A DNA stretch of 64,000 nt from Natronomonas marina (lineage in GTDB: Archaea; Halobacteriota; Halobacteria; Halobacteriales; Haloarculaceae), in contig NZ_CP101154.1 in the NCBI RefSeq assembly GCF_024298905.1, positions 434,001-498,000 of the forward strand, given 5' to 3'. Shown here in pieces: positions 28,193-58,826 of this stretch. A program made the translations under genes and the position numbers. Each line of letters opens with the position of its first letter. Position 1 is the first letter of the stretch. A model generated the notes under the pieces. That model was not told where the DNA came from. It searched no databases and saw only the letters and a program-made list of their open reading frames with translations.

Positions 28193-28657
28193 TCAGCCGA
28201 AAATGCCGAAGCCGAGGCCGCCGAGGAAGCCGACGATGACCGCGATGGGGTTGTCCTGTGTCTCGACGTCGATGGTGGCGACCTCCTCGCCGTCCTGCAT
28301 GACGCTGAAGGAGTCGCCGAACCCGCCGTCGTTTCGATCCTCGAAGGCGTTGTACCCCTCGTAGGTCAGCGACCCGGGACCGAGATACAACTCCCCGCCC
28401 TTGTCGCAGTAACTGGCTTGCGAGTCGCTGTCGACACAGTCGACGCGAGCGTGGCCGCCGGCGATGACGCCGTCGACGACGAGCGTGCTCCCGTCGTCGG
28501 TTTCGAAGGTTATCTCGCCGGGAACGTCGTCGCCGCCGAGTTCGATGTCGTTGTCGCCGAGGGGGTCCTCGGCGGACTGGGCCGCCACCGGTGTCGCAGC
28601 GAGACCGACGCCGACGAGAAGCGTCAGAAGCGCCACGACCGCAGTACGGGTTTCCAT
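28193..28657 (-). CDS. Secreted or membrane-anchored small protein
   Basis: 154 residues from ATG 28657. Sec signal peptide (RTAVVALLTLLVGVGLAAT, then AAQS), an acidic beta-rich domain with two cysteines (VDCVDS, SYCDKGG) and a glycine-rich hydrophobic C-terminus (IAVIVGFLGGLGFGIFG) that may re-enter the membrane. No family recognised. Divergent from mcm across 140 bp. Confidence 0.65.
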   Translation of the reverse strand: METRTAVVALLTLLVGVGLAATPVAAQSAEDPLGDNDIELGGDDVPGEITFETDDGSTLVVDGVIAGGHARVDCVDSDSQASYCDKGGELYLGPGSLTYEGYNAFEDRNDGGFGDSFSVMQDGEEVATIDVETQDNPIAVIVGFLGGLGFGIFG

Positions 28658-28797
28658 ACCACTCCTACAACAACAAATTAATTCACAGTTCTGCCGGAGG
28701 ATACCCACGTTTTATAAAGAGCTGGCGAGCGACCGCCCACTTTCACCCCGGTTGGCAAAGTTCTTATCCGGTGGCGCGCCAAGCCGTTATATCTCTC

Positions 28798-31700
28798 ATG
28801 GCGCGCGCGGAGGACACCGAGGTCATCGACAAGTTCGAGCAGTTCTACCGCGACTACTACCGCAACGAGATCGGGGAACTCGCCCAGAAGTACCCCAACG
28901 AGCAGCGCTCGCTGTACGTCGACTGGGGTGACCTCTACCGGTTTGACCCCGACCTGGCCGACGACCTCGTCGCCCAGCCCGAGCAGATGCGCGACTACGC
29001 CGAGGAGGCCCTGCGGCTCTACGACCTCCCGGTCGACGTGAAGCTGGGACAGGCCCACGTCCGCGTCCAGAACCTCCAGGAGACGACCGCGATTCGGGAC
29101 ATCCGCGCGCGCCACCGCGGCCAGCTCATCGCCGTGACCGGCATCGTCCGGAAGGCCACCGACGTCCGCCCGAAGGTGACCGAGGCCGCCTTCGAGTGCC
29201 AGCGCTGCGGGACGCTGACCCGCATCCCGCAGACCTCCGGGGAGTTCTACGAACCCCACGAGTGCCAGGGCTGTGAACGGCAGGGCCCATTCGAGATTAA
29301 CTTCGACCAGTCGGAGTTCGTCGACGCCCAGAAGCTCCGTGTCCAGGAGTCACCCGAGGGGCTGCGCGGCGGCGAGACGCCACAGAGCATCGACGTCCAC
29401 ATCGACGACGACATCACCGGGAAGGTCACCGCCGGCGACCACGTCCGCGTGACCGGCATCCTCCACCTCGACCAGCAGGGCTCCGACCAGGACAAATCGC
29501 CCATCTTCGACGTCTACATGGACGGCATCGCCGTCGAAATCGAGGACGAGCAGTTCGAGGACATGGACATCACCGACGAGGACAAAAAGGAGATCATCGA
29601 GCTGTCGAACTCCGGCGACATCTACGAGCAGATGGTCAACTCCATCGCGCCGTCCATCTACGGGTACCGCCAGGAGAAACTGGCGATGATGCTCCAGTTG
29701 TTCTCGGGCGTCACCAAACACCTCCCCGACGGCTCCCGAATCCGGGGGGACCTGCACATGCTCCTCATCGGGGACCCCGGTACCGGGAAGTGTGTCAAGG
29801 GAGATACGAGGGTCACGCTCGCCGACGGTCGGGAGCGGCGAATCGGGCCACTCGTCGAAGAGCACCTCGAGGACCCGAGCCCGATCGACGACGGCGTCTA
29901 CGACGAGGTAGACATCGAGCTGCCGTCACTGGACGCCGATGGTACCATCGCTCGGCATCGAGCGACGACGGTGTGGAAACGAGAAGCACCCGACCGGATG
30001 TACCGCATTCGGACTGCAAGCGGGAAGCAACTCGAAGTCACCCCCTCGCATCCACTGTTCACGCAATCGGGCGGGCAGATCCGGTCGGTCGAGGCAGACG
30101 ACCTCACCGAAGGGGAGTTCGTCGCCGTCCCCCGCTCGATACCGACGACGGGCGACGACACCCTGGACGTCGACTACCGGCAGTCGCGGGCAAACAACGC
30201 CGTCCGACTCGATCCACCGGCCGAGTGGACACCGTGGCTCGGTCGGTTCATCGGATACGTCATCGCCGAAGGACACGTCGATGTGGACGACGGGAACAGC
30301 GCCGACATCCGGGTGACGAACGAGGACTCGGAGATAATCTCCGACGTGACCGAGGCGCTCGACCGTCTCGGTGTCAATTACACGGTGGTCAACGAGCGTG
30401 AGAACAAATCGGCACGGGTGGTTCGATGTGGGTCGAGCGAACTCGCAAGCTTCCTCGAGGCAATCGAACCGGCGGTCCTGAAGAAGTCCGCAGACCAGCG
30501 CGTTCCGGCGGGGGTTCTCGAGGCGTCAGTCGAGACGAAGCGGGCGTTTCTCCGGGCTTACGTCGACGCCGAGGGCCACGTCTCTGCGACACAGCGGGAA
30601 GTGACCGTCGTCTCGATGAGTCGCGACCTGCTCGAGGGCGTCGAGTCGCTACTTCTCGCCGTCGGCGTCTCGGTGAGCATCGAATCGCGTCACAACGGTA
30701 GTTACCGGCTCCGGATCAGCGGTCACGATTACGAGCGATACGTGGAGCGGGTCGGCTTCGTCACCAACCGAAAGTCCGCTGCTGCGGGGTCGTTCGACGA
30801 CGTATCTGGCAACCCGAATCTCGATGTGGTGCCGAACGTGGGGAGCGAACTCGAGAGCATCCGGAAGGCCCTCGCGCTCCCACAGTCCGACTGTGGACTC
30901 CCTCGGAGTACGTACCAGCACTACGAGCGTGGTGACCGGAACCCGAGCCGGGAAAGTCTCCAGCAGGTCGTCGAACGGTTCGACAAGCGACTCCAGTGGC
31001 TCGAGGAGACCCGGAGCCGAATCCGGAATGGCGACTGGGACGACATCGAGTCCGTCCGTGCGAAGTTGGACATCTCCCAGCGCGACCTCGCGGACCGGAT
31101 GGGCGTCGAGCAGACCGCCGTGAGCTACTACGAACGGAACGATGTGGTTCCCGACGGTGGCAGTGCCGCAAGCGCCAGAGCTGCGGTCCTCGAACGAATC
31201 GAACGCGGACTGGCCGCCGAGGAAGGGGTAGAATCGCTGAAACGACTGGCGGGGAACGACATCCGGTGGGACCGCATCGAGACCATCGAGACGATTCAGC
31301 CCGATTACGACTGGGTCTACGACCTCGAGGTACCCGGTACCCATAGTTACGTCTCCAACAACGTGCTGTCGCACAACTCCGCCATGCTCCAGTACATCCG
31401 CAACGTCGCCCCGCGGTCGGTGTACACCTCGGGGAAGGGCTCCTCCAGTGCGGGACTGACCGCCGCCGCCGTCCGCGACGACTTCGGCGACGGCCAGCAG
31501 TGGACGCTGGAGGCCGGCGCGCTCGTGCTGGCCGACCAGGGTATCGCCGCCGTCGACGAACTCGACAAGATGCGGTGTGTGGCCGGTGATACGCTCGTCC
31601 ACTTGGCTGACGGGCGTGTATCCCGAATCAGGGCGTTGGCCAGGGAAGCAGCAAGGACTGGCACGATAGAGGACCTCCCGAACGGTCGCACCATCCGCGA

Positions 31701-34404
31701 TACCGACCTGCGGGTGTGGACGATGACCGACGACGGGCGTCTGGTGGACCGCCCCGTGACCGCCATCCACGAATACGACGCCCCGACGGAGTTGACCCGG
31801 GTGTCGCTCGAATCCGGTGAGTCGGTCACCGCCACGGACGACCACCCCTTCTTCGTATTCGAGGACGGCAACCGGGCCGAACGACCGGCTTCCGACCTCG
31901 AACCCGGCGACTGGGTGTACGTCCCTGCTGACATCCCCACGTCGGTGGCCGACGGTGGAACGGCGGCCACGACCGCCCCGGAACGGACCGAGCCCTTACC
32001 GACCGCCACCGCATTCGGTGCGGTCCTGGGATATCTGTCCGGTGACGGAAACGTCTACTACGACAGCGAAGCGGGAAGCTACGGGATTCGGTTCACCAAC
32101 AAGGAGCGCGAGCTGCTCGAGGACTTCGAGCGTGCCTGTAGAGACGCGTTCGACGCGGAACCGGTCCGATATCCGAGCGAGCAGCGAGACGACGGCGTCG
32201 GTACGGTACGACTACACGGTCGTGAGTACGCGGACGCCGTTCTCGACGCCGGGATGAACCTGGAGACGTACGACCGCAAAGCGTTCCCTCACGAAGTTTC
32301 CGAAGGCTGTAGAGAGACGAAAGCCGCCTTCGTGCGCGCTATGGCCGACAGCGAGGGGACCGTCGACACGTCGGCCGGAAACGTCCGAATCCACTCGGCG
32401 AGCGAAGAGCTCCTTCGGGGTCTCAAGAGCCTCCTGCTGGAGTTCGGTATCTCGTGTCAGCTTCGGTCCCGGGACCGAAAGGGGAAACTGGACCTGTACG
32501 TACTCAATATCACGGCGGCCGATTCGCTTCGGGCGTACGACCGGCATATCGGGTTCGGCCTGAAGCGAAAGCAGTCCGCTCTGGAGGAGGTACGCGCAGC
32601 CGTGGATGGCGACAGAACGATACTCGACGTTCTTCCGGACTGTGGTGAACTCCTCTACGAGTTGAGAGAATCGCTTCGGCTCTATCAGTCCGAGTGTGGG
32701 CTGGACGATGCGACGTACTGTACCTTCGAGAACGGGGACGCGAACCTCTCACTCCACCGGGGGCGTACAGTGCTCGAGCGGTTCGAGGCGCGCGTCGAAC
32801 GCGCTACGGTGGACGAGGAGACGCTGAGCACGCAGTGCGACTGGAAAACTCTTGAAGAGCTGAAGAGGCGCTACAACGTTTCTCAGCGCGAGCTAGCAGC
32901 GGATTCCGCTCACAGTCAGCAGGAGATATCGAGACGGTGGGGTGACGACGAGGAACTTCGAGAGTACATCCGTCGCCGACTCGAGAAAATCGTCGAGGAC
33001 GTTGCACGGACGGACGTATCGCCGCTCGCCGACCTGGTCGACGGCGACGTGAAGTGGCGACGGGTTGCGGACGTCGAGACGGTCGACAGCGAGTACGAGG
33101 ACGACCGGATTCCGGTTCTCCACGAGGAACTGGCCAGTCTCGTCGGCTGTGAGAGTGACTCCGCAGAGCAGCGGGCCCGGGAGCTGCTCGACCCGGACGT
33201 CGATACGACCTCGTGGACCGGTCTCCGGGAAGCTCTGGAGTGTCACGGTGTCCCGCTGGGCCGAATCGCGACCGAACTCGACGTGGCCGAGTCGACCGTC
33301 TCGCGCTGGTTCAACGGCCTGGTAGAAACGGACCGGTTCGAGGACGTGAGGGCCGTCGCGGAACAGCGCATGGCCGAGAGACGCGACGAAATCGGACGGC
33401 TACTGGCGGAAATCGAGTATAGACGGACTCCGAAGGTGTACGACCTCACCGTTGAAGGAACCCACAACTTCGTCGCCAACAGCGCCGTGGTTCACAACTC
33501 CGAGGACCGCTCGGCTATGCACGAAGCACTCGAGCAGCAATCTATTAGTGTAAGTAAAGCAGGAATAAATGCAACCCTCAAATCCAGATGCTCGTTATTG
33601 GGAGCTGCGAACCCCAAGTACGGGAGATTCGATCAATACGAACCTATCGGGGAACAGATAGACCTGGAGCCGGCGCTCATCTCGCGGTTCGACCTCATCT
33701 TCACGGTGACCGACCAGCCGGACGAGGAGGAGGACGCCAACCTCGCCGAGCACATCATCAACACGAACTACGCGGGCGAGTTGCACACCCACCGGGAGAA
33801 CACGGCGACGTCGAACGTCACCCAGGAGGAGGTCGACAACGTCACCGAGGACGTCGAACCGGACATCGACTCCGAGTTGCTGCGGAAGTACATCGCCTAC
33901 GCCAAGCGGAACTGCTTCCCGACGATGACTGAGGAGGCGAAAAAAGAGATACGGGACTTCTACGTCGACCTGCGGGCGAAGGGGCAGGACGAGGACGCCC
34001 CGGTGCCGGTGACGGCGCGGAAACTGGAGGCGCTGGTGCGGCTCTCGGAGGCCTCCGCCCGGATGCGGCTGTCGGACACCGTCGAGGCCGAGGACGCCAG
34101 CCGCGTCATCGACATCGTGCGGTCGTGTCTGCAGGATATCGGCGTCGACCCCGAGACGGGCGAGTTCGACGCCGACGTCGTCGAAACGGGCCAGTCCAAG
34201 AGCCAGCGCGACCGCATCAAGAACATCAAGACGCTCATCAGCGAGGTCGAGGAGGAGTACGACGAGGGCGCCCCGCGCGAGGAGGTGCTCGACCGGGCCG
34301 AGGAGACGGGCATGGAGCGGTCGAAGGCCGAACACGAAATCGAGAAGCTCCGACAGAAGGGTGACGTCTACGAACCGCAGACGGACCACCTCCGGACGGT
34401 CTGA
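28798..34404 (+). CDS. mcm: MCM replicative helicase precursor with two inteins
   Basis: 1868-residue precursor; the mature protein after two splicing events is 698 residues, the normal haloarchaeal MCM length. Exteins: 1-331, 861-926, 1568-1868. N-terminal domain with zinc site CQRCG and CQGC; AAA+ core with Walker A GDPGTGK-S split exactly between K and S by intein 1, Walker B AVDELDKM, and intein 2 inserted right after the following Arg, before SEDRSAMHEA. Arginine finger region LISRFDLIF and a winged-helix C-terminus. It unwinds DNA at the replication fork as a hexamer and cannot work unless both inteins leave. ATG 28798 chosen; upstream codons read as non-coding. The stop shares one base with the next ATG. 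Confidence 0.97.
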   Translation: MARAEDTEVIDKFEQFYRDYYRNEIGELAQKYPNEQRSLYVDWGDLYRFDPDLADDLVAQPEQMRDYAEEALRLYDLPVDVKLGQAHVRVQNLQETTAIRDIRARHRGQLIAVTGIVRKATDVRPKVTEAAFECQRCGTLTRIPQTSGEFYEPHECQGCERQGPFEINFDQSEFVDAQKLRVQESPEGLRGGETPQSIDVHIDDDITGKVTAGDHVRVTGILHLDQQGSDQDKSPIFDVYMDGIAVEIEDEQFEDMDITDEDKKEIIELSNSGDIYEQMVNSIAPSIYGYRQEKLAMMLQLFSGVTKHLPDGSRIRGDLHMLLIGDPGTGKCVKGDTRVTLADGRERRIGPLVEEHLEDPSPIDDGVYDEVDIELPSLDADGTIARHRATTVWKREAPDRMYRIRTASGKQLEVTPSHPLFTQSGGQIRSVEADDLTEGEFVAVPRSIPTTGDDTLDVDYRQSRANNAVRLDPPAEWTPWLGRFIGYVIAEGHVDVDDGNSADIRVTNEDSEIISDVTEALDRLGVNYTVVNERENKSARVVRCGSSELASFLEAIEPAVLKKSADQRVPAGVLEASVETKRAFLRAYVDAEGHVSATQREVTVVSMSRDLLEGVESLLLAVGVSVSIESRHNGSYRLRISGHDYERYVERVGFVTNRKSAAAGSFDDVSGNPNLDVVPNVGSELESIRKALALPQSDCGLPRSTYQHYERGDRNPSRESLQQVVERFDKRLQWLEETRSRIRNGDWDDIESVRAKLDISQRDLADRMGVEQTAVSYYERNDVVPDGGSAASARAAVLERIERGLAAEEGVESLKRLAGNDIRWDRIETIETIQPDYDWVYDLEVPGTHSYVSNNVLSHNSAMLQYIRNVAPRSVYTSGKGSSSAGLTAAAVRDDFGDGQQWTLEAGALVLADQGIAAVDELDKMRCVAGDTLVHLADGRVSRIRALAREAARTGTIEDLPNGRTIRDTDLRVWTMTDDGRLVDRPVTAIHEYDAPTELTRVSLESGESVTATDDHPFFVFEDGNRAERPASDLEPGDWVYVPADIPTSVADGGTAATTAPERTEPLPTATAFGAVLGYLSGDGNVYYDSEAGSYGIRFTNKERELLEDFERACRDAFDAEPVRYPSEQRDDGVGTVRLHGREYADAVLDAGMNLETYDRKAFPHEVSEGCRETKAAFVRAMADSEGTVDTSAGNVRIHSASEELLRGLKSLLLEFGISCQLRSRDRKGKLDLYVLNITAADSLRAYDRHIGFGLKRKQSALEEVRAAVDGDRTILDVLPDCGELLYELRESLRLYQSECGLDDATYCTFENGDANLSLHRGRTVLERFEARVERATVDEETLSTQCDWKTLEELKRRYNVSQRELAADSAHSQQEISRRWGDDEELREYIRRRLEKIVEDVARTDVSPLADLVDGDVKWRRVADVETVDSEYEDDRIPVLHEELASLVGCESDSAEQRARELLDPDVDTTSWTGLREALECHGVPLGRIATELDVAESTVSRWFNGLVETDRFEDVRAVAEQRMAERRDEIGRLLAEIEYRRTPKVYDLTVEGTHNFVANSAVVHNSEDRSAMHEALEQQSISVSKAGINATLKSRCSLLGAANPKYGRFDQYEPIGEQIDLEPALISRFDLIFTVTDQPDEEEDANLAEHIINTNYAGELHTHRENTATSNVTQEEVDNVTEDVEPDIDSELLRKYIAYAKRNCFPTMTEEAKKEIRDFYVDLRAKGQDEDAPVPVTARKLEALVRLSEASARMRLSDTVEAEDASRVIDIVRSCLQDIGVDPETGEFDADVVETGQSKSQRDRIKNIKTLISEVEEEYDEGAPREEVLDRAEETGMERSKAEHEIEKLRQKGDVYEPQTDHLRTV
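29791..31377 (+). other. Intein 1 of MCM (Walker A site), 529 residues
   Basis: Begins with Cys (CVKGDTRVTLADG) and ends HN followed by extein Ser: all splice residues are present. Block B is LEVTPSHPLF with the TxxH motif; the C-terminal block is VYDLEVPGTHSYV. A LAGLIDADG homing endonuclease is inside, with LGRFIGYVIAEGH and FLRAYVDAEGH both keeping the acidic residue, so it may still be active. Helix-turn-helix-like segments follow (ISQRDLADRMGVEQTAVSYY). Insertion between Lys and Ser of Walker A is a known MCM intein site. Confidence 0.95.
31576..33498 (+). other. Intein 2 of MCM (after Walker B), 641 residues
   Basis: Starts CVAGDTLVHLADG, block B SVTATDDHPFF (TxxH), ends VYDLTVEGTHNFV and VVHN before extein Ser. 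Endonuclease motifs FGAVLGYLSGDGN and FVRAMADSEGT keep acidic residues. Larger than intein 1 because it carries at least two helix-turn-helix-like segments (VSQRELAADSAHSQQEISRR and LGRIATELDVAESTVSRWF). A stretch LYQSECGLDDATYCTFENGD mirrors LPQSDCGLPRSTYQHYERGD in intein 1, so the two share an ancestor. Confidence 0.95.
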
Positions 34405-36280: not shown

Positions 36281-36967
36281 GAACTCCGCACGGTCACCGC
36301 CGAGACGTCGGCGACCTCGCTCACCGTTGCCTGCGTCATGTCGTAGCCGGCCTCGCGTGCGGCGGTGTAGAGACACGCGGCCGCGACGCCGCTGGGGTCG
36401 CGGCCGGCGGCCAGTCCACTGTCGCGGGCCCGTTCGGCGAGTTCGCGGGCACGGCGCTCGATGTCGTTCGGCGCGTCGAGCTTCGAGGCGAACCTGGCGA
36501 GGTACTCGGCGGGATCGATCGGTCCCGTCGGGAGCCCGAGTGTCCGGTTCATCGCGTCGTAGGCGGCCGTCAGTTCGTCCTCGGTGGCGGTCGCCTCGGC
36601 GACGACCTCGTCGATGGTTCGGGACACCGAGGCCGTCCGGCAGACCGCGTAGACGGCCGCGGCGGCGAATCCCTCGATGGAGCGGCCCTGCAGCAGGTCC
36701 TCGTCCTGGGCGGACTCGAAGAGCACACAGGCGCGCTCCTGGAGGCTCTCGGGGAGTTCGAGCCGGCCGGTCAGCCGCCGGATCTCCGTGAAGCCGTACA
36801 CCTGATTCCGCTCGCGCTTCGAGCCGATGTGTGCCCGCTTGTGCTGGCGGCGCATCCGGGCGACCCGGCGGCGCTTGCGCCCCTTCAGCCGGGTCGAACT
36901 GCCGATTTCCGTCGACAGCCCGCGGTCGTGCCGCGAGCGAGTCAGCGGTGCGCCGCAGCGCTCGGGG
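36259..36967 (-). pseudogene. tfb: Transcription factor B, 3' part (core repeats) cut off by an integrated element
   Basis: The open frame enters from the att repeat (PERCGAPLTRSRH) and runs through DRGLSTEIG and a basic linker into both cyclin-like repeats: LPESLQERACVLFESAQDED with GRSIEGFAAAAVYAVC, and RRARELAERARDSGLAAGRD with PSGVAAACLYTAARE. The zinc ribbon and B-finger are missing here; they lie at 42788-42982. The last 222 codons (36259-36927) join in frame to that fragment. An internal ATG at 36855 could give a 198-residue truncated protein without zinc ribbon, which should not recruit RNA polymerase and might compete for TBP. Confidence 0.92.
36928..36967 (-). repeat. Left attachment repeat, 40 bp, within tfb
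   Basis: Identical over 40 bp, same orientation, to 42788-42827. The sequence is TFB coding DNA (PERCGAPLTRSRH region). One copy was presumably the original chromosomal attachment site and the other came with the element. Confidence 0.95.
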
Positions 36968-37408
36968 AGTACCGGCTAACAACACGAATCGTCGGACGGG
37001 AAGCGACTGACCCGGTACTCCCCGGCTGTTCCGACGTTAGCCCACTCGTTTCACGACAACGGCCCGATGCCATACTGGGGTTGTGCAATCAACATCCGTG
37101 GCCCCGTAGAAGAAAGTCTAGGCTCCCCGTCGAGGTGTCCCGTCAGAAGCGTCTATTTACTCACACAGAGCGTACTGCACGACGTATTCGGGGACTCGTT
37201 TGTCCGCCGAGAGGGAAACATCGTACAGCCCAAACGAACCTACGTAGAGTCACGCAGACACAGGCTCGGACAACAGTCAGGTGTCTATTTCGGGGATCGT
37301 CTTGTCCGTCCGACCCAAACCCCTCATGAACCGAACGAAGTGCAGAAACGTCGCTCACAATGACGCGAATGAACCCTCACGGCCGTCTCTCGGGACCGCG
37401 GAAGAGCG
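36968..37408. other. Gene-free left end of the element with imperfect repeats
   Basis: 441 bp with only unconvincing frames. Two 20-bp imperfect direct repeats, TTCGGGGACTCGTTTGTCCG (37187-37206) and TTCGGGGATCGTCTTGTCCG (37289-37308), differ at a few positions. They could be binding sites for an element protein, an origin or recombination accessory sites. Nothing else is evident. Confidence 0.5.
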
Positions 37409-37561
37409 TCACCGTCCCGAACGTCCGCCGTTCGTAGAGAGGTAACTGTGCAACCATCCGAGTACAACCGCGGCTACCAGAATGGCCGCCAGGAACGTAT
37501 CGAACCGACTATCCGACCGCCATAGCCGGACGCACTCCCGGCCAACGCGTATCGGGTTCAT
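37409..37561 (-). CDS. 50-residue single-pass membrane protein
   Basis: ATG 37561 overlaps the upstream gene's stop (ATGA). Product: a basic, Arg-rich N-terminus (MNPIRVGRECVRLWR), one membrane helix (FLAAILVAAVVLGWLHSYL, about 23-41) and a short tail ending GGRSGR. The positive-inside rule puts the N-terminus in the cytoplasm. The coupled position as third gene of a small operon is the main support. The size and layout resemble small membrane toxins or phage accessory proteins, but nothing identifies it. Confidence 0.6.
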   Translation of the reverse strand: MNPIRVGRECVRLWRSDSRFDTFLAAILVAAVVLGWLHSYLSTNGGRSGR

Positions 37562-37980
37562 CGTTCCTCAAAGTCGTCTCGGTGGTTGTAATCCGGCCTG
37601 ACCCTCACCACGTTGCTCTGATTCAAGATGTCAAGCAAATCCTCGAACTCCCGGTACAACTCCTGGACCTGTGCTCGGAGTAGACCGATACTCACGGTGT
37701 TCTCCTCGGCCTGTTCCGACGCCCTATGTGCCCGTGAGAGTGCCTTCTCCAATCCCTCGAACTGTTCAGTATCCGTGTCGGCAAGCTGTTGTACCGCCTC
37801 TTGAACCGATATTTCGTCTTCCGTCGACGGATAGACCACGGTCACATCTTCTCCGTCGATCTCCGCCAGTGCCGCCTCAATCGCCGCTTCGGTACTGCCG
37901 GCCCCCTCCGCCTCACCAGCGGATTCGACCGTCTCGCTGCCCGTCGGTTCGTCCATGTCTTCAGGCTTCGACAGGCTCAT
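37558..37980 (-). CDS. Acidic element protein with coiled coil, unknown function
   Basis: 140 residues, ATG 37980 overlapping the stop of the RHH gene. A disordered acidic N-terminus (about 1-40, rich in Glu, Ser, Thr, Gly) is followed by a short beta unit (DVTVVYPSTEDEISVQEAVQ) and a coiled coil (about 70-125, IGLLRAQVQELYREFEDLLD). Middle gene of a three-gene ATGA-coupled operon. Confidence 0.75.
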   Translation of the reverse strand: MSLSKPEDMDEPTGSETVESAGEAEGAGSTEAAIEAALAEIDGEDVTVVYPSTEDEISVQEAVQQLADTDTEQFEGLEKALSRAHRASEQAEENTVSIGLLRAQVQELYREFEDLLDILNQSNVVRVRPDYNHRDDFEER

Positions 37981-38180
37981 GCTCTCACATCCATGACGAC
38001 GGTTTCCTCACAGTGCGGACAATCCAGTTGTTCGCGGCGGCTCTCCCGGTACACATCGAAGATACGACGGAGTAACTCGGCTCGGCTGACCGACAGCCTT
38101 CGAGCTTCGGCTTCGAGGAACTCGTGCATATTCTGGTCGACCTTCGCGGATACGGGGGTATCCCCAAAGCACCGTGCCAT
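37977..38180 (-). CDS. Ribbon-helix-helix-like regulator with CPHC motif
   Basis: 67 residues from ATG 38180 (GTG 38186 possible). SAKVDQNMHEFLEAEARRLS followed by SRAELLRRIFDVY matches the beta-helix-helix pattern of small CopG/Arc-type DNA-binding proteins. A C-terminal CPHCEETVVMDV gives half a zinc site, completed perhaps by dimerisation. First gene of the leftward operon, transcribed away from the structured region, so it probably regulates from there. Confidence 0.75.
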   Translation of the reverse strand: MARCFGDTPVSAKVDQNMHEFLEAEARRLSVSRAELLRRIFDVYRESRREQLDCPHCEETVVMDVRA

Positions 38181-38295
38181 ACCCACAGCTTGAGCTTGGA
38201 AACCAAAGTATTCATTGGTTGTATTACTGAGTAATCAGAGAATACTGCCGGTTACTGGGTGAAACGCTTTTGTCTACCGAACCAATAGCTCCGCT

Positions 38296-38575
38296 AAGCG
38301 GCTGATAGAAAGTACCGGGGGAGAAGGGCTGTGACAAGCTAACCTTCTTTTCCCGTGACTATCAGCCTGTCGCCGTGAAACCGGGTAGGTCGTAGGACTG
38401 TCCGCTAACTTGCGGGCCAACCCGAAAGGGGAACGGGATAACGGGCCAAGCGTCTCCACTAGAGGGCGTAATATAGCATCCCGTCGTAGACGGAGACCAC
38501 ACGGTCGGAGGCGAAGACGGGATGGAACCACGGAAGTGACCGTCGGTCCACACGGTCCAAGGGAACGGAGTAGGG
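38296..38575 (+). ncRNA. Candidate structured RNA, gene-free and highly self-complementary
   Basis: Stems read by eye: 38300-38308 with 38359-38367 (9 bp, perfect), enclosing 38316-38327 with 38343-38355 (12 pairs including G-U, one bulge); 38402-38405 with 38412-38415; 38421-38423 with 38428-38430 closing a GAAA tetraloop; 38477-38485 with 38516-38524 (9 bp, perfect), enclosing 38495-38498 with 38503-38506 around ACAC; 38538-38542 with 38553-38557. The GNRA loop favours the plus strand. It lies between divergent element genes. It could instead be an origin, a recombination site or a long leader of the gene at 38614. No known RNA family recognised. Confidence 0.4.
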
Positions 38576-38613
38576 GATGCCTCGAATAACAATGCGGTAA
38601 TAGAACGGAAGTG

Positions 38614-38838
38614 ATGGAACTAATGGGCTACTGGGTCACCTACGACGACTTCGAGACGAACGGGGAACAGCCGTTCCGGTACAAGCACTTCGATTCGTGG
38701 GGCGGGGCGTGGGTATTCAAACAGAGCAAGGAGCGGATCGGGCTATCGCCGCGGGTGTTCGAGGCCAACGAGTGTGCCACCGACGCCTGTACGACCGACA
38801 CCGACTGGGGGAGAGAACACTGCCGTGAGTGTGTTTAG
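38614..38838 (+). CDS. Small element protein with C-terminal Cys motif
   Basis: 74 residues from ATG 38614 (GTG 38611 also in frame). Aromatic N-terminus (YWVTYDDFETNGEQPFRYKH, WGGAWVFKQSKERIG) and four cysteines near the end (CATDAC and HCREC), a likely zinc knuckle. No family recognised. Directly downstream of the structured region on the same strand. Confidence 0.6.
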   Translation: MELMGYWVTYDDFETNGEQPFRYKHFDSWGGAWVFKQSKERIGLSPRVFEANECATDACTTDTDWGREHCRECV

Positions 38839-38892
38839 AGCGGCCATACGGCCCGCTCCCTACGTCTACAAAGATCGAAAAGAACGGTAAGG

Positions 38893-39162
38893 TCAGTCGT
38901 CGGCTTCGACTTCCCCCGGGAGCATAGACCGGGTTCCGTCCGTCGGGGGCCATTCGTAGTTGCCTTCCCGACGATCCCGTTCGATCCGCTGCTCAAACAT
39001 CGCTTCGAGCTGCTCACACGTTTCGACGGCTTGCCGGACGACTTGGAATTCATCCGGGTCAAGGACGCCAGCGTCGATATGAGAAATGGAACTCCGGGCG
39101 GAGTAGACCCGGCGAAGCGCCCCCTCAACGTGCTTCATGTTGTCGTACTTCTTTTCACTCAT
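38893..39162 (-). CDS. Small helical element protein
   Basis: 89 residues from ATG 39162, which overlaps the preceding gene's end by 8 bp. Starts MSEKKYDNMKHVEGALRRVY, mostly helical with a DPDEFQVVRQAVETCEQLEA stretch and an acidic tail. Last gene of a leftward two- or three-gene unit. Unknown function. Confidence 0.65.
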   Translation of the reverse strand: MSEKKYDNMKHVEGALRRVYSARSSISHIDAGVLDPDEFQVVRQAVETCEQLEAMFEQRIERDRREGNYEWPPTDGTRSMLPGEVEADD

Positions 39163-39346
39163 CGGTTGACACCCGAGTTTCCTCGTCATGGACTGGCAGG
39201 ATCTCGTCGTCGTTGTCCGACGCGAGCCGTAGACGGGCGGCATCACGAAGCCATCCATCAATATCGTTAGTCCATCGCGTTTCGCTGGCAGCCGCTTCGA
39301 CCGCTGCATACTCCTCGGGAGTGAGTTCGACAGTGACAGTGGGCAT
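39155..39346 (-). CDS. Small RHH- or antitoxin-like element protein
   Basis: 63 residues from ATG 39346. MPTVTVELTPEEYAAVEAAA followed by TNDIDGWLRDAARLRL is a strand-helix-helix layout as in CopG-type antitoxins. Overlaps the next gene (38893-39162), so the two could be a regulator plus partner pair; no toxin fold is recognisable. Confidence 0.6.
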   Translation of the reverse strand: MPTVTVELTPEEYAAVEAAASETRWTNDIDGWLRDAARLRLASDNDDEILPVHDEETRVSTDE

Positions 39347-39576
39347 TACTCCGCACCTCCGTTGTTGAACTCGGCCGACCAAGCAATTGGGATTGAGTAT
39401 CTCTTGAACGATGCGCCGGATTCATGCCCGCTGAGGCGGGTAGAGTTTCTTGCGGCCATAGCTCGGTCGCACGGTCGAGGGCGTTCCAGCGCCCCGGCCA
39501 CCTTCTGCGGTGTGCCGTCCCGTGCGTAGTCCCCACTACCGGAGGCCGGTGTCTTATAGGTTAGGATATGTAGCAA
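39346..39576 (-). CDS. Possible small element gene, start uncertain
   Basis: Frame of up to 76 codons whose stop TAA shares one base with the next ATG. The only early start is TTG at 39576; ATG at 39459 would give 37 residues. The product is basic and not clearly folded (ERPRPCDRAMAARNSTRLSG). Stop-start coupling is the main argument for it. Confidence 0.3.
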   Translation of the reverse strand: MLHILTYKTPASGSGDYARDGTPQKVAGALERPRPCDRAMAARNSTRLSGHESGASFKRYSIPIAWSAEFNNGGAE

Positions 39577-39625
39577 CTATGAGGACACAGGACAAGTTGA
39601 AGTGGTCGGGTGAGGAAATACTACC

Positions 39626-39877
39626 ATGCCTCCGAATCCACAAGCGGTTATGGCGAAGCAACGGGCGTTGCTGACGACGACGGAACGTGAACAATTAGCC
39701 GGCGAGCATGGGGATCAGCGCCGATATGAGGCCACATCCCGCGTCCGCCGACGGATTAAGGATGAGCTTACGACGGATATTGAGCTTCTTGAAAAACATC
39801 ACCCTGGCTTGCTCAACGAACTCCGTGACGTTGTTTGTGAGTCGAGAGGCGATAGGGACTCAACAGACGATGTTTGA
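39626..39877 (+). CDS. Conserved haloarchaeal plasmid/provirus protein
   Basis: 83 residues, ATG 39626, preceded by GGTGAGG as a possible ribosome-binding site. Entirely helical and charged (MPPNPQAVMAKQRALLTTTE, RRRIKDELTTDIELLEKHHP). I recall close relatives beside integrases in haloarchaeal proviruses and plasmids; no function is established. Its last 8 bases overlap the next gene. Confidence 0.75.
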   Translation: MPPNPQAVMAKQRALLTTTEREQLAGEHGDQRRYEATSRVRRRIKDELTTDIELLEKHHPGLLNELRDVVCESRGDRDSTDDV

Positions 39878-40181
39878 ATATCAGTTCGAAGACATCCCGC
39901 GTCCTTGGAGGCTGAAGGAATACAACAAACACGGATACGCTACGGTAGCTAATCCCCTTGACAACGCGTATATTAAAGTTGACTTTCGGGACGGGTTTCG
40001 CGTGCAGCTTTACCAACAAGATGAAGATACAGGTGAGTGGGAATTACTACGCGATGAACACCCGGAGGAAAATAGCGAGGCCGAAGATATTATGCGGGAA
40101 ATGATGAATAAAGACTGTTGGGCCGGGGTTAACGAACAGCTTGCAGAGTTGATTAGGAACATCGACGACTCCGACCAATAA
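39870..40181 (+). CDS. Element protein of unknown function
   Basis: 103 residues from ATG 39870, overlapping the previous gene. Beta-rich first half (FEDIPRPWRLKEYNKHGYAT, AYIKVDFRDGFRVQLYQQDE) and acidic helical second half. More AT-rich than core genes. Probably co-transcribed with 39626-39877. Confidence 0.65.
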   Translation: MFEYQFEDIPRPWRLKEYNKHGYATVANPLDNAYIKVDFRDGFRVQLYQQDEDTGEWELLRDEHPEENSEAEDIMREMMNKDCWAGVNEQLAELIRNIDDSDQ

Positions 40182-40241
40182 CCTCCGTTCCTGAACAGGC
40201 TGCCCGTAACGCTATAGTTTTAAGACACCTGATGGGTGTCC

Positions 40242-40898
40242 ATGACGGTGGGTTGCTACGTCCGGGTATCGACGGCCGATCAGAACCTTGACCGGCAGCT
40301 AGAAGCGACGAGCGAATACGCAACCGACGAACTCGGCACGGGCTTGGCGAACGTCGAAACTTACCGTGATAAGTCGACGGGGACGGACACGGACCGGAGC
40401 GGCTACCGGCAGTTAATGAACGACGTGGAGGCCGGCGAGATCGGGACCGTTGTCGTTCACGATACGACTCGACTTACTCGGTCCCTGCAAGACCTAGATC
40501 GAACGGTAGAGCGGATTACCGAGGCCGGTGGGGAACTTCATTTCGTCCGTGATAACCTACCGCCGTTCTCGGGTGACGATGACCCGATGGCTCGGCTCAT
40601 GTTGCAGATGCTCGGGGCGTTTGCGGAGTGGGAAGCTCGGGTCAAACAGAGGAACACCCGTGAGGGGATCGCGGCTCGACGTGCCGACGACGACGAGTAT
40701 CACCACGGCCCCGCACCCCTTGGTTTCGAGAAGGACGACGGTCATTTGATTGAGGGCGACGACTATCACCAGGTGGTCGCGGTACTCGACATGGTACAGA
40801 AAGGGGAGCTGTCGAAGCGAAAAGCGGCAGCCCGTTTAGACTGTGGACGGGCGACTGTTTCCCGGGCGCTTGACCGAGCGGAGCTGTACGGAATATAG
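40242..40898 (+). CDS. Serine recombinase (resolvase/invertase family)
   Basis: 218 residues from ATG 40242. Catalytic domain VGCYVRVSTADQNLDRQLEA with the nucleophile Ser in RVSTADQ, then DTTRLTRSLQDLD and FAEWEARVKQRNTREG. The long E-helix is followed by a C-terminal helix-turn-helix (LSKRKAAARLDCGRATVSRA), as in Hin/Gin-type enzymes. It would cut and rejoin DNA at short sites by subunit rotation: resolving dimers, inverting a segment or aiding excision. Its sites are not visible. TATA-like TATAGTTTTAAG is about 25 bases before the start. Confidence 0.9.
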   Translation: MTVGCYVRVSTADQNLDRQLEATSEYATDELGTGLANVETYRDKSTGTDTDRSGYRQLMNDVEAGEIGTVVVHDTTRLTRSLQDLDRTVERITEAGGELHFVRDNLPPFSGDDDPMARLMLQMLGAFAEWEARVKQRNTREGIAARRADDDEYHHGPAPLGFEKDDGHLIEGDDYHQVVAVLDMVQKGELSKRKAAARLDCGRATVSRALDRAELYGI

Positions 40899-40910
40899 TG
40901 CGTTAGAAGG

Positions 40911-41450
40911 TCAGAAGATTACCAATATACAGAGACAACCCAATGATGCAAAGAGTGAGGATATACCGTACCAAAATATGTTGTTAGCTTTGGAAATGCG
41001 TTTAGCGTTGTCATCGCCCCATGCAAGATACGCAATAGCCATTTCTTTTTGATAATCGCTTGTGCTAATCTCGCCTCTAATCGCGTCGTATGCGTTACGA
41101 CTACTTGGACCGATATGTTCGGGTTGAGATATTTTATACGAATATGCAAAGAAGAACAAACTGAGTAGTAGCGGAAGTAGCGGAACCAATACCTCTCGAC
41201 CGGTTTCAAAAAATCCAAACTGGGTATTTCCAAATTGGAACAGACCTACATAAACAGACCCAAAAAGCAATACAATCTTTATCATATCGACCGATTTGTG
41301 AAGCAATTCCCTGTTCCAATCAAGCCCACGCTCAAAACTTCGTATTGCTTCTTGATTCAATTCCTCCCAAAATTCCGATTCAGGTATCTCTGACTTTTTT
41401 GTTGCTCTAAGTAATTCCTCAATTCCAACTGACCCCTCCTGGTCTTCCAT
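40911..41450 (-). CDS. AT-rich three-helix membrane protein, candidate accessory cargo
   Basis: 179 residues from ATG 41450. A soluble helical N-terminus (about 1-55) is followed by two membrane helices (MIKIVLLFGSVYVGLFQF and LVPLLPLLLSLFFFAYSY, about 55-105), a cytoplasmic loop (about 106-150) and a third helix (FWYGISSLFASLGCLCILVI). Much lower GC than its neighbours, so recently acquired. The layout recalls SLATT-like or other membrane effectors of defence and conflict systems, but no signature confirms it. Convergent with the serine recombinase. Confidence 0.7.
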   Translation of the reverse strand: MEDQEGSVGIEELLRATKKSEIPESEFWEELNQEAIRSFERGLDWNRELLHKSVDMIKIVLLFGSVYVGLFQFGNTQFGFFETGREVLVPLLPLLLSLFFFAYSYKISQPEHIGPSSRNAYDAIRGEISTSDYQKEMAIAYLAWGDDNAKRISKANNIFWYGISSLFASLGCLCILVIF

Positions 41451-41679
41451 GACAGCTGTTACTCTGCGTGAATTTGTAAAATCTGGTACGTCAGACCTTG
41501 ATGCAATTGCAGTCTGGTGAACCCGTTCTACTGGGTAAGTGAAGCCCGCTATTGACTCCTTTAAGTCTATTTGCGGCTATCCGACTGAAACCACGTTCGC
41601 GGCAAACGAGTCCCGTCAGTAGGGACGTATGCGAAGTTTCTGACCCTTAGAATCGACTCTGACGGTTGGGGAGAGGTAG

Positions 41680-42687
41680 CTACAGGCCGTCGAGATAGTC
41701 CCGCCTGGCGTCCATCTTCTCCCGGTCCGTCATTTGGTTGTAGTGCTTTTCCAGCACGTCTGGCGATACGTCGCATCGGTCGCTAATCACGGCCTTCGGG
41801 ACTTCCTCGCGAGAAAGATAGGTCAGGTACCCACGTCGAACGTCATGGGCCGACACCGACGACGGGCATTTGCTGGCTATGTCGCTATCGTTCGCGGCGG
41901 GGCATTCGTCCGGGTCTTTGTCGTGTGGACACCCGCCGTCGTAGATGCAAGGACGAGTGAGCCGGTAGATCGTTCGCTGCATAGTTGTATTCGACGGCCG
42001 TCCGTGGGCGGTGGTAAGGAGCGGGTCACGTCCGTGGTCGTCTCTCACGTCGACGCGATTGTGGCTCAGATAGGCGTCAATAACCTCTCGCGTCCCTCCA
42101 GCGAGTCCAACGACCCGTTCACCGTTTCGTCCGTTCTTGATTGGCGTATCCGTCTCTGGACGATGTTTGAAAGAGACACACGGCTCCTCTGCGTCATAAT
42201 CCCGAACGTCGAGACTACGAATCGCGCCGATCCGCGCTCCGGTTTCCCACGTCAGTAGCATCATCGCATGGTCCCGTGAGGCGTATCGGTACTTTTCGAG
42301 GAACCGAAGAATATCCTCTGCGGCCCCTGATTCGAGATAACGGGTTCGGGCGCGTTCTCCGTCCGGTATCTCAATCCGTTCGGGAAGCTCGGGTTCGACA
42401 GCATCAACCGACCGTGCCCACCGGAGGAACATCCTGACCGACGAGAGGCGGGAAATCAGGGTCAGTTTTGCAACGTCCCGTGCGGTTTTGAGCCGGTACC
42501 GGTGTAGGTCCATCCCGTCAAGCTCGTACAACTGCTGTATGCCCTCGCGTTCGCACCACTCGACAAACAGGCCGACGCGGGACCTGATTGACCGGATCGT
42601 TGATTCGCGTACTTCTGGTTCTCGGACGGCGACGTACATCTCCAGAGCCTCGGAAGGCTCTAGTTCGTTGAATTCGTTGTCTGTCAT
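41680..42687 (-). CDS. Tyrosine recombinase (XerC/D-like integrase)
   Basis: 335 residues from ATG 42687 (GTG 42708 in frame upstream). N-terminal SAM-like core-binding domain (about 20-105: ALEMYVAVREPEVRESTIRS). The catalytic domain has Arg in ETGARIGAIRSLD, His-x-x-Arg in SAHDVRRGYLTY and the nucleophile Tyr in LEKHYNQMT. A Cys/His cluster CIYDGGCPHDKDPDECP is typical of haloarchaeal integrases. It sits 100 bp inside the right attachment repeat and presumably drives integration into and excision from tfb. Confidence 0.93.
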   Translation of the reverse strand: MTDNEFNELEPSEALEMYVAVREPEVRESTIRSIRSRVGLFVEWCEREGIQQLYELDGMDLHRYRLKTARDVAKLTLISRLSSVRMFLRWARSVDAVEPELPERIEIPDGERARTRYLESGAAEDILRFLEKYRYASRDHAMMLLTWETGARIGAIRSLDVRDYDAEEPCVSFKHRPETDTPIKNGRNGERVVGLAGGTREVIDAYLSHNRVDVRDDHGRDPLLTTAHGRPSNTTMQRTIYRLTRPCIYDGGCPHDKDPDECPAANDSDIASKCPSSVSAHDVRRGYLTYLSREEVPKAVISDRCDVSPDVLEKHYNQMTDREKMDARRDYLDGL

Positions 42688-42787
42688 GGGGTGTTCCCTC
42701 TTGCTCACAACCCCATTCGACCGCGGGCCGGTGGGGGGTCCTTCGCGGACGACGACACGAACACCGACAAGCCGGATGTAGACGGGA

Positions 42788-42827
42788 GTGCCGCGAGCGA
42801 GTCAGCGGTGCGCCGCAGCGCTCGGGG
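42788..42827 (-). repeat. Right attachment repeat, 40 bp, within tfb
   Basis: Perfect 40-bp match in direct orientation to 36928-36967, in the same codon phase relative to TFB. The match ends sharply on both sides, so these 40 bp bound the crossover region. Confidence 0.95.
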
Positions 42828-48088: not shown

Positions 48089-48760
48089 ATGCCGATCGAG
48101 GACCGCGACGACGCCCACGTCATCACGCACGCGCTGGCGAAGCACACCCTCTCGGAGCTCCGGTCGGTCGAGACCGATCAGGTGGCGTTCCGCGACGGCC
48201 TGGTAGAGCTGGGCCGGCTCTGCGGGTTCGAGATAATCGACGGGATGATGGAAACGGAGTACGTTTCCATCACGACGCCGCTGGCGGAGACCACCGGCGA
48301 GGTCGTCAAAGGGCTCGACGACGTCGTCATCGTCAACGTCCTCCGGGCGGCGACGCCGTTCGTCGAGGGGCTCGTCGAGGCGTTCCCCCACGCCAGACAG
48401 GGCGTCATCTCCGCCGGGCGAAACGAGGAGGCCGGCATGAACGACGAGGGGCAGTTCCCCATCACCGTCGACTACGTGAAGCTCCCCGAGATAAACGACG
48501 AGGACACCGTCATTGTCGCCGATCCGATGCTCGCCACCGGCAGCACGATGGTGGCGGTGCTGGAGGAGGTCCTCGAGATGGGCGACCCCGAGCGGCTGGT
48601 CGTCCTGTCGGCGGTCAGCGCCCCGCCGGGGCTGGTCCGTGTCGACGAGGCGTTCCCGAAGGCCGACGTCATCACCGTCAGCGTCGACGAACGCCTCGAC
48701 GAGGACGGCTACATCGTCCCCGGCGTCGGCGATGCCGGCGACCGCGCGTTCGGTACCTGA
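48089..48760 (+). CDS. upp: Uracil phosphoribosyltransferase
   Basis: 223 residues. Salvages uracil: uracil plus PRPP gives UMP plus diphosphate. PRPP loop [14 protein letters not shown] (about 149-162), upstream motif [14 protein letters not shown], and the uracil-binding C-terminal [10 protein letters not shown]. Length fits the family. TATA-like TTTTAAGCGG about 27 bases before the ATG suggests a leaderless message. Confidence 0.95.
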
Positions 48761-57473: not shown

Positions 57474-58577
57474 ATGAGCACGGCTGACACCGAACAGGAG
57501 TCGGAGACGATGCGCGCCGTCGTCTTCCAGGAACCCCAGGAGAAGATGGAGGTAGAGGAGGTCGACCGCCCGGAACCGGACGCCGACGGCATCGTCGTCG
57601 AGACGGAGGCCTGCGGTATCTGTCGGTCTGACTGGCACGCCTGGCAGGGCGACTGGGACTGGGTGGGGGTCATGCCCACGCCCGGCCTCATCTTCGGGCA
57701 CGAACCCGTCGGTATCGTCAAGGAGGTCGGCGAGGACGTCGAGAACTTCAGCGAGGGCGACCGCGTCTGCGTTCCCTTCAACCTCAGCGACGGCACTTGC
57801 CGGTACTGCAAGCAGGGTCGCGCCAACATCTGCGAGCGCGTCATCCCGCTTGGCTTCGTCTCCTTCCAGCCCGGCGCCTTCGCCGAGGAGTTCCCCGTCC
57901 GCAACGCCGACCACAACGTCATCAAACTCCCCGACAACGTCGACCCCGTCGACGTGGCCGGCCTGGGCTGTCGGTTCGCCACCGCCTTCCACGGGCTGGT
58001 CCACCGCGTCGACGTGACCGCCGGCGACTGGGTAGCCGTCCACGGCTGCGGCGGCGTTGGCCTCTCGGCGGTCCACATCGCCGACGCCCTCGGCGCCAAC
58101 GTCATCGCCGTCGACCTCGGCGAGGACAAACTCGACAAGGCCGAGGAACTCGGCGCCGACGAGACCGTCAACGTCACCGAGGTCCAGGACGTCCCGCAGG
58201 CCGTCAAGGGCCACACGCCGTCCAGCCGCGGCGTCGAGGTCAGCGTCGACGCGCTGGGCGTCGCCGAGACCTGCCGCAACTCCGTGAACTCGCTGGCCAA
58301 GGGCGGCCAGAACCTCCAGATCGGCCTCACCACCAGCGAGGAGGAGGGCGAGGTCTCCCTGCCCGTCGACACCATCGTCATGGACGAACGCGAGTTCATC
58401 GGCTCCTTCGGCATGCCGCCCCACGAGTACGAGGAGATCTTCTCGATGATGGAGCAGGACAAGATCGACCCCGGCAAGATCGTCTCCGAGACCGTCGCGC
58501 TGGACGACGTCCCCGACGTCATCGCCTCGATGGACGACTACGACACCGTCGGCATCCCCGTCTGCGACGAGTTCTAG
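57474..58577 (+). CDS. Zinc-dependent alcohol dehydrogenase family
   Basis: 367 residues from ATG 57474 (an ATG at 57450 is also in frame). Catalytic zinc ligands: Cys in [12 protein letters not shown], His in FGHEPVG, and a later CGCR-type region ([12 protein letters not shown]). Structural zinc cysteines appear only partly, as [16 protein letters not shown]. Rossmann motif [15 protein letters not shown] (about 182-196) for NAD(P). Oxidises or reduces an alcohol or aldehyde; substrate unknown. Very biased codon use suggests strong expression. Confidence 0.9.
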
Positions 58578-58593
58578 ACACCCACTTTTTACA

Positions 58594-58620
58594 CGGCCGC
58601 TCGCCGGTGGCGAGCGGCCG
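58594..58620. terminator. Strong 12-bp hairpin after the alcohol dehydrogenase
   Basis: Perfect 12-bp stem with a 3-base loop (arms 58594-58605 and 58609-58620), preceded by CTTTTT and followed by GCAAAAACG. It lies 17 bp after the stop and may terminate or stabilise that transcript. A second palindromic patch follows to about 58745. Confidence 0.6.
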
Positions 58621-58826
58621 GCAAAAACGTGGGGAAAATATGCGCGCGACCTTCCAGCCGCGCCCTCCGGGCGCGTTAGTCAGGTTGCGCTACGGCACCT
58701 CACTTCGTTCGGCGCCGCGAACCGCTCGGCGCTTCGCGCCTCGCGGATGCTGGCGGCTTCCCGACTATCGGTTTCCAGTGAGAACGAATACGGTCCCTTT
58801 TACTTCCCGGCCGACACTGCTGGCGT

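What the first reader, a model, noticed from the sequence alone, without database searches (positions are those of the whole stretch)
38296..38575. Highly structured, gene-free 280-nt segment in the element: possible new ncRNA
Two perfect 9-bp long-range pairings (38300-38308/38359-38367 and 38477-38485/38516-38524), nested inner stems and a stem-closed GAAA tetraloop fall in a region without a credible reading frame, between divergent genes. I do not recognise tmRNA, RNase P, SRP RNA or a group I/II intron in it.
Basis: partly seen in the sequence, partly recalled or inferred. Interest (0 to 1): 0.75.

Follow-up and report, generated by a model that had tools for sequence, protein, structure and literature searches.

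The report
Structured RNA in haloarchaeal integrative element
A small piece of mobile DNA in a salt-loving archaeon carries, next to its repressor gene, a roughly 300-letter segment that most likely makes a folded RNA of an undescribed type, because a second mobile element in a distant relative has the same fold at the same place with matching changes in its stem; what the RNA does is still unknown.

Summary
The segment is real and gene-free. Its total folding energy is only modestly unusual (z -2.1), but its 5' hairpin (P1, 38300-38367) is exceptional (z -5.3; 6th of 10,654 72-nt windows). Neither a DNA homologue in the collections searched nor an Rfam match was found. The element (36928-42827, 40-bp direct repeats, inserted in a tfb gene) shares an integrase, a serine recombinase and a ribbon-helix-helix (RHH) repressor with a 5.1-kb element in a tRNA-Arg gene of another haloarchaeal family (G040). 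Divergent from its RHH gene, G040 carries the same RNA: a structure model built from the window alone finds it as the best hit in the whole G040 genome (45.4 bits, E 9e-7), against 16.6 bits for a sequence-only model. The internal-loop bases are identical (10/10), while the stem shows three compensatory double changes and one mismatch. A shared BRE/TATA-like promoter lies 39-42 nt upstream of P1. It is most likely a transcribed structured RNA of an undescribed, very rare family (2 members in about 400 genomes of the class). I favour a free-standing, RHH-controlled RNA of the element; a structured leader of the small ORF downstream is the main rival. Function is inferred, not shown.

The parts
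36928..42827 (.). Integrative element bounded by a 40-bp direct repeat (36928-36967 and 42788-42827), splitting a tfb gene
   Evidence: direct repeat found; TFB N-terminal part 42.6-42.98 kb (-) and C-terminal part 36.26-36.98 kb (-)
37980..38186 (-). RHH (CopG-type) putative repressor with C-terminal CxxC motif; ATG at 38180
   Evidence: Pfam RHH_1 1.7e-4; homologues in G040 and G405 46-52% identical
38201..38245 (.). Palindromes in the AT-rich divergent promoter region (AACCAAAGTATTCATTGGTT 38201-38220; ATTACTGAGTAAT 38223-38235): candidate RHH operators
   Evidence: G040 has TATACAAGTTTGGTTGTATA at the equivalent place; binding is inferred
38261..38273 (+). Promoter-like BRE/TATA string GAAACGCTTTTGT; predicted start about 38296
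   Evidence: G040 has GAAACCCTTATTT, 42 nt before P1 (39 nt here); the degenerate string occurs once in the window; haloarchaeal consensus CGAAA / TTWT from PMC4983044
38300..38367 (+). P1 hairpin: outer stem 38300-38308/38359-38367, internal loop AAAGUAC/UGA, inner stem from CGGG(38316-38319)/CCCG(38352-38355)
   Evidence: z -5.25; conserved in G040 with 3 compensatory changes
38368..38382 (+). Conserved strand after P1: TGTCGCCGTGAAACC (G040 TGTCACCCTGAACCC)
38373..38444 (+). P2 domain: CCGU(38373-38376)/ACGG(38441-38444) with internal loop GAAA/GAUA; G040 has CCCU...GGGAUAGGGG
   Evidence: predicted; one compensatory change by hand alignment (tentative)
38477..38524 (+). Distal hairpin with 9-bp perfect stem
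   Evidence: G040 has a 9-bp hairpin in the distal part too (CTACCGTAC/GTACGGTAG), but homology is not shown
38611..38838 (+). 75-aa ORF with Cys-rich C-terminus, directly downstream; no relatives found
40236..40898 (+). Serine recombinase (invertase/resolvase type), shared with the G040 element (68% identity)
41680..42708 (-). Tyrosine integrase, shared with the G040 element (46% identity)

Best explanation
The + strand of 38296 to about 38575 is transcribed from its own archaeal promoter (GAAACGCTTTTGT, 38261-38273), starting at about 38296, into a structured non-coding RNA of roughly 280-300 nt. It opens with a rigid hairpin (P1) whose asymmetric internal loop AAAGUAC/UGA looks like a G-bulge (sarcin-ricin-like) motif and is the likely contact site for a protein or a tertiary partner; a second conserved stem (P2) and variable hairpins follow. 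A divergently transcribed RHH repressor probably binds the palindromes between the two promoters and sets both transcripts. RNA and RHH, with integrase and serine recombinase, are the shared core of small haloarchaeal integrative elements whose cargo differs. The most likely mode of action is in trans, as a protein-binding regulatory RNA serving the element (control of its gene expression, maintenance or excision). Shown by computation: homologous conserved structure, covariation in P1, shared promoter-like string, synteny. Inferred: transcription, repressor binding, the G-bulge motif, trans action. The precise task is a guess.
For: Homologue found by synteny, not by the RNA itself. Non-circular test: window-only CM scores the G040 locus 45.4 bits, E 5e-8 in 205 kb and best in the whole G040 genome, E 9.4e-7, next 0.57; the sequence-only model gives 16.6 bits. 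P1: 3 pairs with both sides changed, 96% of cells paired versus 39-56% when slid; unpaired internal-loop columns 10/10 identical while 11/18 stem positions are. Chance that the three 3'-side changes fall on partners of the four changed 5' positions and restore pairing is about 0.002. P1 sequence alignment 161 vs null 108 +/- 9, 0 of 500. Shared promoter-like string at 39/42 nt. No coding signal. Window P1 folds better on the + than on the - strand. Same neighbours in both elements.
Against: Only two members. P1 has one broken pair in G040; the shuffle control has no power with two sequences (71/500). The 3' half is not alignable by sequence. Whole-segment z only about -2.1 in both. In G040 the P1 hairpin alone folds slightly better on the antisense strand (-17.1 vs -14.2). 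No transcription data; no terminator seen before the 75-aa ORF; the G405 element has the RHH gene without the RNA. No target, partner or phenotype is known.
Confidence: 0.5

Rival explanations
1. Cis-acting structured leader: the segment is the 5' untranslated region of the small ORF that follows (75 aa here, 61 aa in G040) and controls its expression, for example as a protein- or ligand-responsive leader.
For: Both elements have a same-strand small ORF at nearly the same distance from P1 (314 and 299 nt), and no T-run terminator is visible between RNA and ORF.
Against: The two ORF products share no recognisable similarity and match no family. Most haloarchaeal mRNAs are leaderless, and the authors of a Haloferax transcriptome study call translational control by structured leaders not typical (PMC4983044). 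A weak CGAA/TAACAAT string at 38583-38593 would suit a leaderless start of the ORF of its own (inference from sequence).
Confidence: 0.3
2. DNA-level element: the inverted repeats are a recognition region for the RHH protein, a partition site, an origin or a recombination site of the element, and the RNA-like look is secondary.
For: The region adjoins an RHH gene and lies at the end of the element opposite the integrase in both elements; in G040 the sense strand is not favoured in P1 folding.
Against: Unpaired internal-loop bases are more conserved than the stem bases, and the stem covaries, as for an RNA. No match to the att repeats above chance. The palindromes that suit an RHH operator lie upstream (38201-38245), outside the structured segment.
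Confidence: 0.12
3. The resemblance is chance or a degenerate remnant without function: GC-rich intergenic DNA with a strong hairpin.
For: Other 72-nt windows of this sequence fold as unusually; two members only.
Against: Window-only model finds the syntenic place as best hit of a whole genome, E 9.4e-7; promoter-like string, loop and compensated stem are all kept.
Confidence: 0.08

Closest known systems
Ornate large RNAs of bacterial mobile elements (GOLLD, ROOL; also OLE)
   Same: Structured RNA without a protein frame, some in phages or mobile elements, function largely unknown (PMC12286853)
   Different: Here about 280-300 nt and in haloarchaea; no sequence or Rfam covariance match
Bridge RNA of IS110 elements
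   Same: Structured RNA carried by an element that encodes a recombinase (PMC11208160)
   Different: Recombinases here are an ordinary serine resolvase/invertase and a tyrosine integrase, and the RNA has no complementarity to the att repeats above chance
Haloarchaeal intergenic sRNAs (e.g. Haloferax sRNA132)
   Same: Intergenic transcript with its own BRE/TATA promoter (PMC4983044, PMC6560208)
   Different: Carried by a mobile element, paired with an RHH gene, and with a conserved structure; no sequence relationship was tested

Membership tests
Any Rfam 15 family (RNase P, SRP, tmRNA, group I/II introns, GOLLD, ROOL, OLE, riboswitches and others) | covariance-model match at or near the gathering score | tested here: not met
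   no match in the whole window; best matches with permissive E-values are implausible microRNA/snoRNA models far below threshold for window and G040
tmRNA / tRNA | ARAGORN hit | tested here: not met
   only tRNA-His and tRNA-Pro elsewhere in the window
Bridge-RNA-like guide RNA | loops complementary to the element's target/donor junctions | tested here: not met
   longest matches to att repeats 7-8 nt, as in shuffled RNA
Bridge-RNA-like guide RNA | IS110-type DEDD recombinase next to it | tested here: not met
   element encodes a Resolvase-domain serine recombinase and a Phage_integrase tyrosine recombinase
Type III toxin-antitoxin RNA | tandem RNA repeats followed by a ToxN-like endoRNase | tested here: not met
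   only short two-copy repeats; downstream proteins match no family
Structured RNA conserved between elements (new family with the G040 RNA) | compensatory changes in stems with conserved loop sequence, same genomic place | tested here: met
   two members only
Structured RNA conserved between elements (new family with the G040 RNA) | conserved structure beyond P1/P2 (distal hairpins) | tested here: inconclusive
   both have a 9-bp distal hairpin but sequence similarity of the 3' half equals the null
Structured RNA conserved between elements (new family with the G040 RNA) | is transcribed | not testable with these tools
   only a promoter-like string is shown

The most novel reading that the evidence does not exclude
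An undescribed RNA family that is a core, RHH-controlled part of small haloarchaeal integrative elements and acts directly with the serine recombinase or integrase (as scaffold or switch for excision, inversion or integration).
Probability: 0.08. Interest if true: 0.85.

Novelty: new member of a known kind. Interest (0 to 1): 0.52.

Why it matters
Structured RNAs of archaeal mobile elements are hardly catalogued. This gives a defined, covarying RNA with a predicted start site, a candidate repressor and a clear core-versus-cargo setting, so its transcription, partner and role in element maintenance can be tested. It also shows that such RNAs may be missed by sequence search: DNA similarity found nothing, while synteny plus a structure model did.

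Tried and rejected
Short blastn hits of the segment in seven genomes lie inside conserved host protein genes and are chance. CM hits in G281 and G125 (E 0.02-0.06) lie inside annotated-like long frames and break the loop motif: rejected. The second G040 hit (E 0.57) was not pursued. Plasmid, phage and viral-contig searches by DNA, by RHH, integrase and recombinase protein, and by three hairpin patterns gave no relative. Loci brought in by the 83-aa protein carry no RNA; the loci from the recombinase search of viral contigs were not scanned with the RNA model. RHH homologue in G405 has no RNA upstream. Guide-type complementarity to att sites or to the rest of the element: none above shuffles. 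A 12-nt match of the G040 RNA to the 23S sarcin-ricin loop and a GGGAUAAC resemblance to 23S were noticed from memory only and, in view of the negative Rfam scans, taken as chance. MAFFT could not align the distal hairpins sensibly.

Full report
What is in the sequence. The segment 38220-38570 has no coding signal in any frame; it lies between an RHH gene read to the left (37980-38186; Pfam RHH_1) and a 75-aa ORF read to the right from 38611. Folding energy of the whole segment is only modestly better than shuffled (z -2.12; 8th of 185 windows). The signal is concentrated in the first hairpin, 38298-38369 (z -5.25, 0 of 200 shuffles; 6th of 10,654 windows), and less securely in 38470-38530.

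The setting. A 40-bp direct repeat (36928-36967 and 42788-42827) bounds a 5.9-kb integrative element that splits a tfb gene. It encodes a tyrosine integrase, a serine recombinase and small proteins, mostly without family. No DNA relative of the structured segment was found in 391 genomes of the class (seven short hits are chance matches in host genes), in plasmids or phages, and Rfam has no match.

The homologue. The RHH protein has one clear relative in 194 genomes of the class: G040, of another family (E 7.8e-15). There, too, it lies in a small element: integrase (46%), serine recombinase (68%), RHH (50%), bounded by a 33-bp repeat at a tRNA-Arg gene. Its other large gene is a GmrSD restriction enzyme, so the cargo differs. 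Divergent from the RHH gene, exactly as in the window, lies GGGATATGGAAAGTACCGGG...CCCGTGACCATAACCCTGTCACCCTGAAC, against GGCTGATAGAAAGTACCGGG...CCCGTGACTATCAGCCTGTCGCCGTGAAAC in the window. The P1 region aligns far above shuffled sequence (161 vs 108 +/- 9, 0 of 500), and so does the full intergenic region (533 vs 418 +/- 24, 0 of 1000), while the 3' half alone does not.

Structure is what is conserved. In P1 the ten unpaired internal-loop positions are identical, but the outer stem has changed: of nine pairs five are unchanged, three changed on both sides and still pair, one is a mismatch in G040. Sliding the partners destroys pairing (96% to 39-56%). A simple count gives about 0.002 for three such changes by accident. 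The strongest test is not circular: a covariance model built from the window sequence only finds the G040 place with 45.4 bits, E 5e-8 among 205 kb and as best hit of the whole G040 genome, E 9.4e-7, the next being 0.57; the same model without base pairs gives 16.6 bits. A second stem, P2 (CCGU/ACGG around a GAAA/GAUA internal loop; CCCU/GGGG around GAAC/GAUA in G040), is likely but rests on a hand alignment. Both RNAs have a 9-bp hairpin in the distal part, but homology of these is not shown.

Transcription. A BRE/TATA-like string, GAAACGCTTTTGT in the window and GAAACCCTTATTT in G040, lies 39 and 42 nt before P1, which would start the RNA a few bases before P1. It fits the haloarchaeal consensus CGAAA/TTWT (PMC4983044) and occurs once in the window. 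Palindromes suited to an RHH operator lie between this promoter and the RHH gene in both elements. In the window P1 folds better on the + strand; in G040 the small hairpin does not favour either reading clearly (-14.2 sense, -17.1 antisense). No expression data were available.

Range. A two-sequence model of P1 searched in 381 class genomes and 99 genomes of the family of G040 found only these two members; two weak hits lie in protein genes. Viral contigs gave none. The RHH gene of a third element (G405) has no such RNA. The family is thus very rare, or changes too fast for this model.

How it may work. The RNA, its divergent RHH gene, integrase and recombinase are what the two elements share; the rest differs. 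I take it to be a free-standing RNA of the element whose level is set by the RHH protein, with P1 as a protein- or tertiary-contact site: the AAAGUAC/UGA loop contains AGUA opposite GAC, the sarcin-ricin (G-bulge) arrangement (inference from established motif knowledge, not tested). The main rival is a structured leader of the small ORF that starts 299-314 nt after P1 in both; the unrelated products and the rarity of structured leaders in haloarchaea speak against it but do not exclude it. A DNA-level site and pure chance are less likely for the reasons given above. Guide-RNA action on the att sites finds no support.

Verdict. Its reality as a conserved RNA structure I put at about 0.85, the free-standing reading at about 0.5 and any precise function much lower.

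Noticed in passing
36928-42827: The element splits a tfb (transcription factor B) gene: N-terminal Zn-ribbon part ends at the right repeat, cyclin-fold part lies left of the element; the host tfb copy looks inactivated. Use of a protein gene rather than a tRNA as att site is notable, since the related G040 element uses tRNA-Arg.
   Followed up: partly
L061:2818-7982: Related 5.1-kb element in G040 carries a GmrSD-type (type IV) restriction enzyme as cargo between integrase and serine recombinase.
   Followed up: partly
39346-39576: Small ORF on the minus strand whose KVAGALERPRPCDRAMAARNSTRLSG stretch is kept at 80-86% DNA identity in other genomes (G417, G185), higher than anything else in this half of the element.
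   Followed up: no
28591-34404: MCM helicase gene of 1937 aa that appears to hold two inteins.
   Followed up: no
58566-58640: Strongest hairpin of the window by energy against shuffles (z about -7.8 on the minus strand); another at 48234-48310. Not examined.
   Followed up: no
L048:3556-4361: In G405 a third RHH relative is followed by a coiled-coil protein, as the RHH gene of the window is followed by a 140-aa protein with Gln/Glu-rich helices; no RNA there.
   Followed up: no
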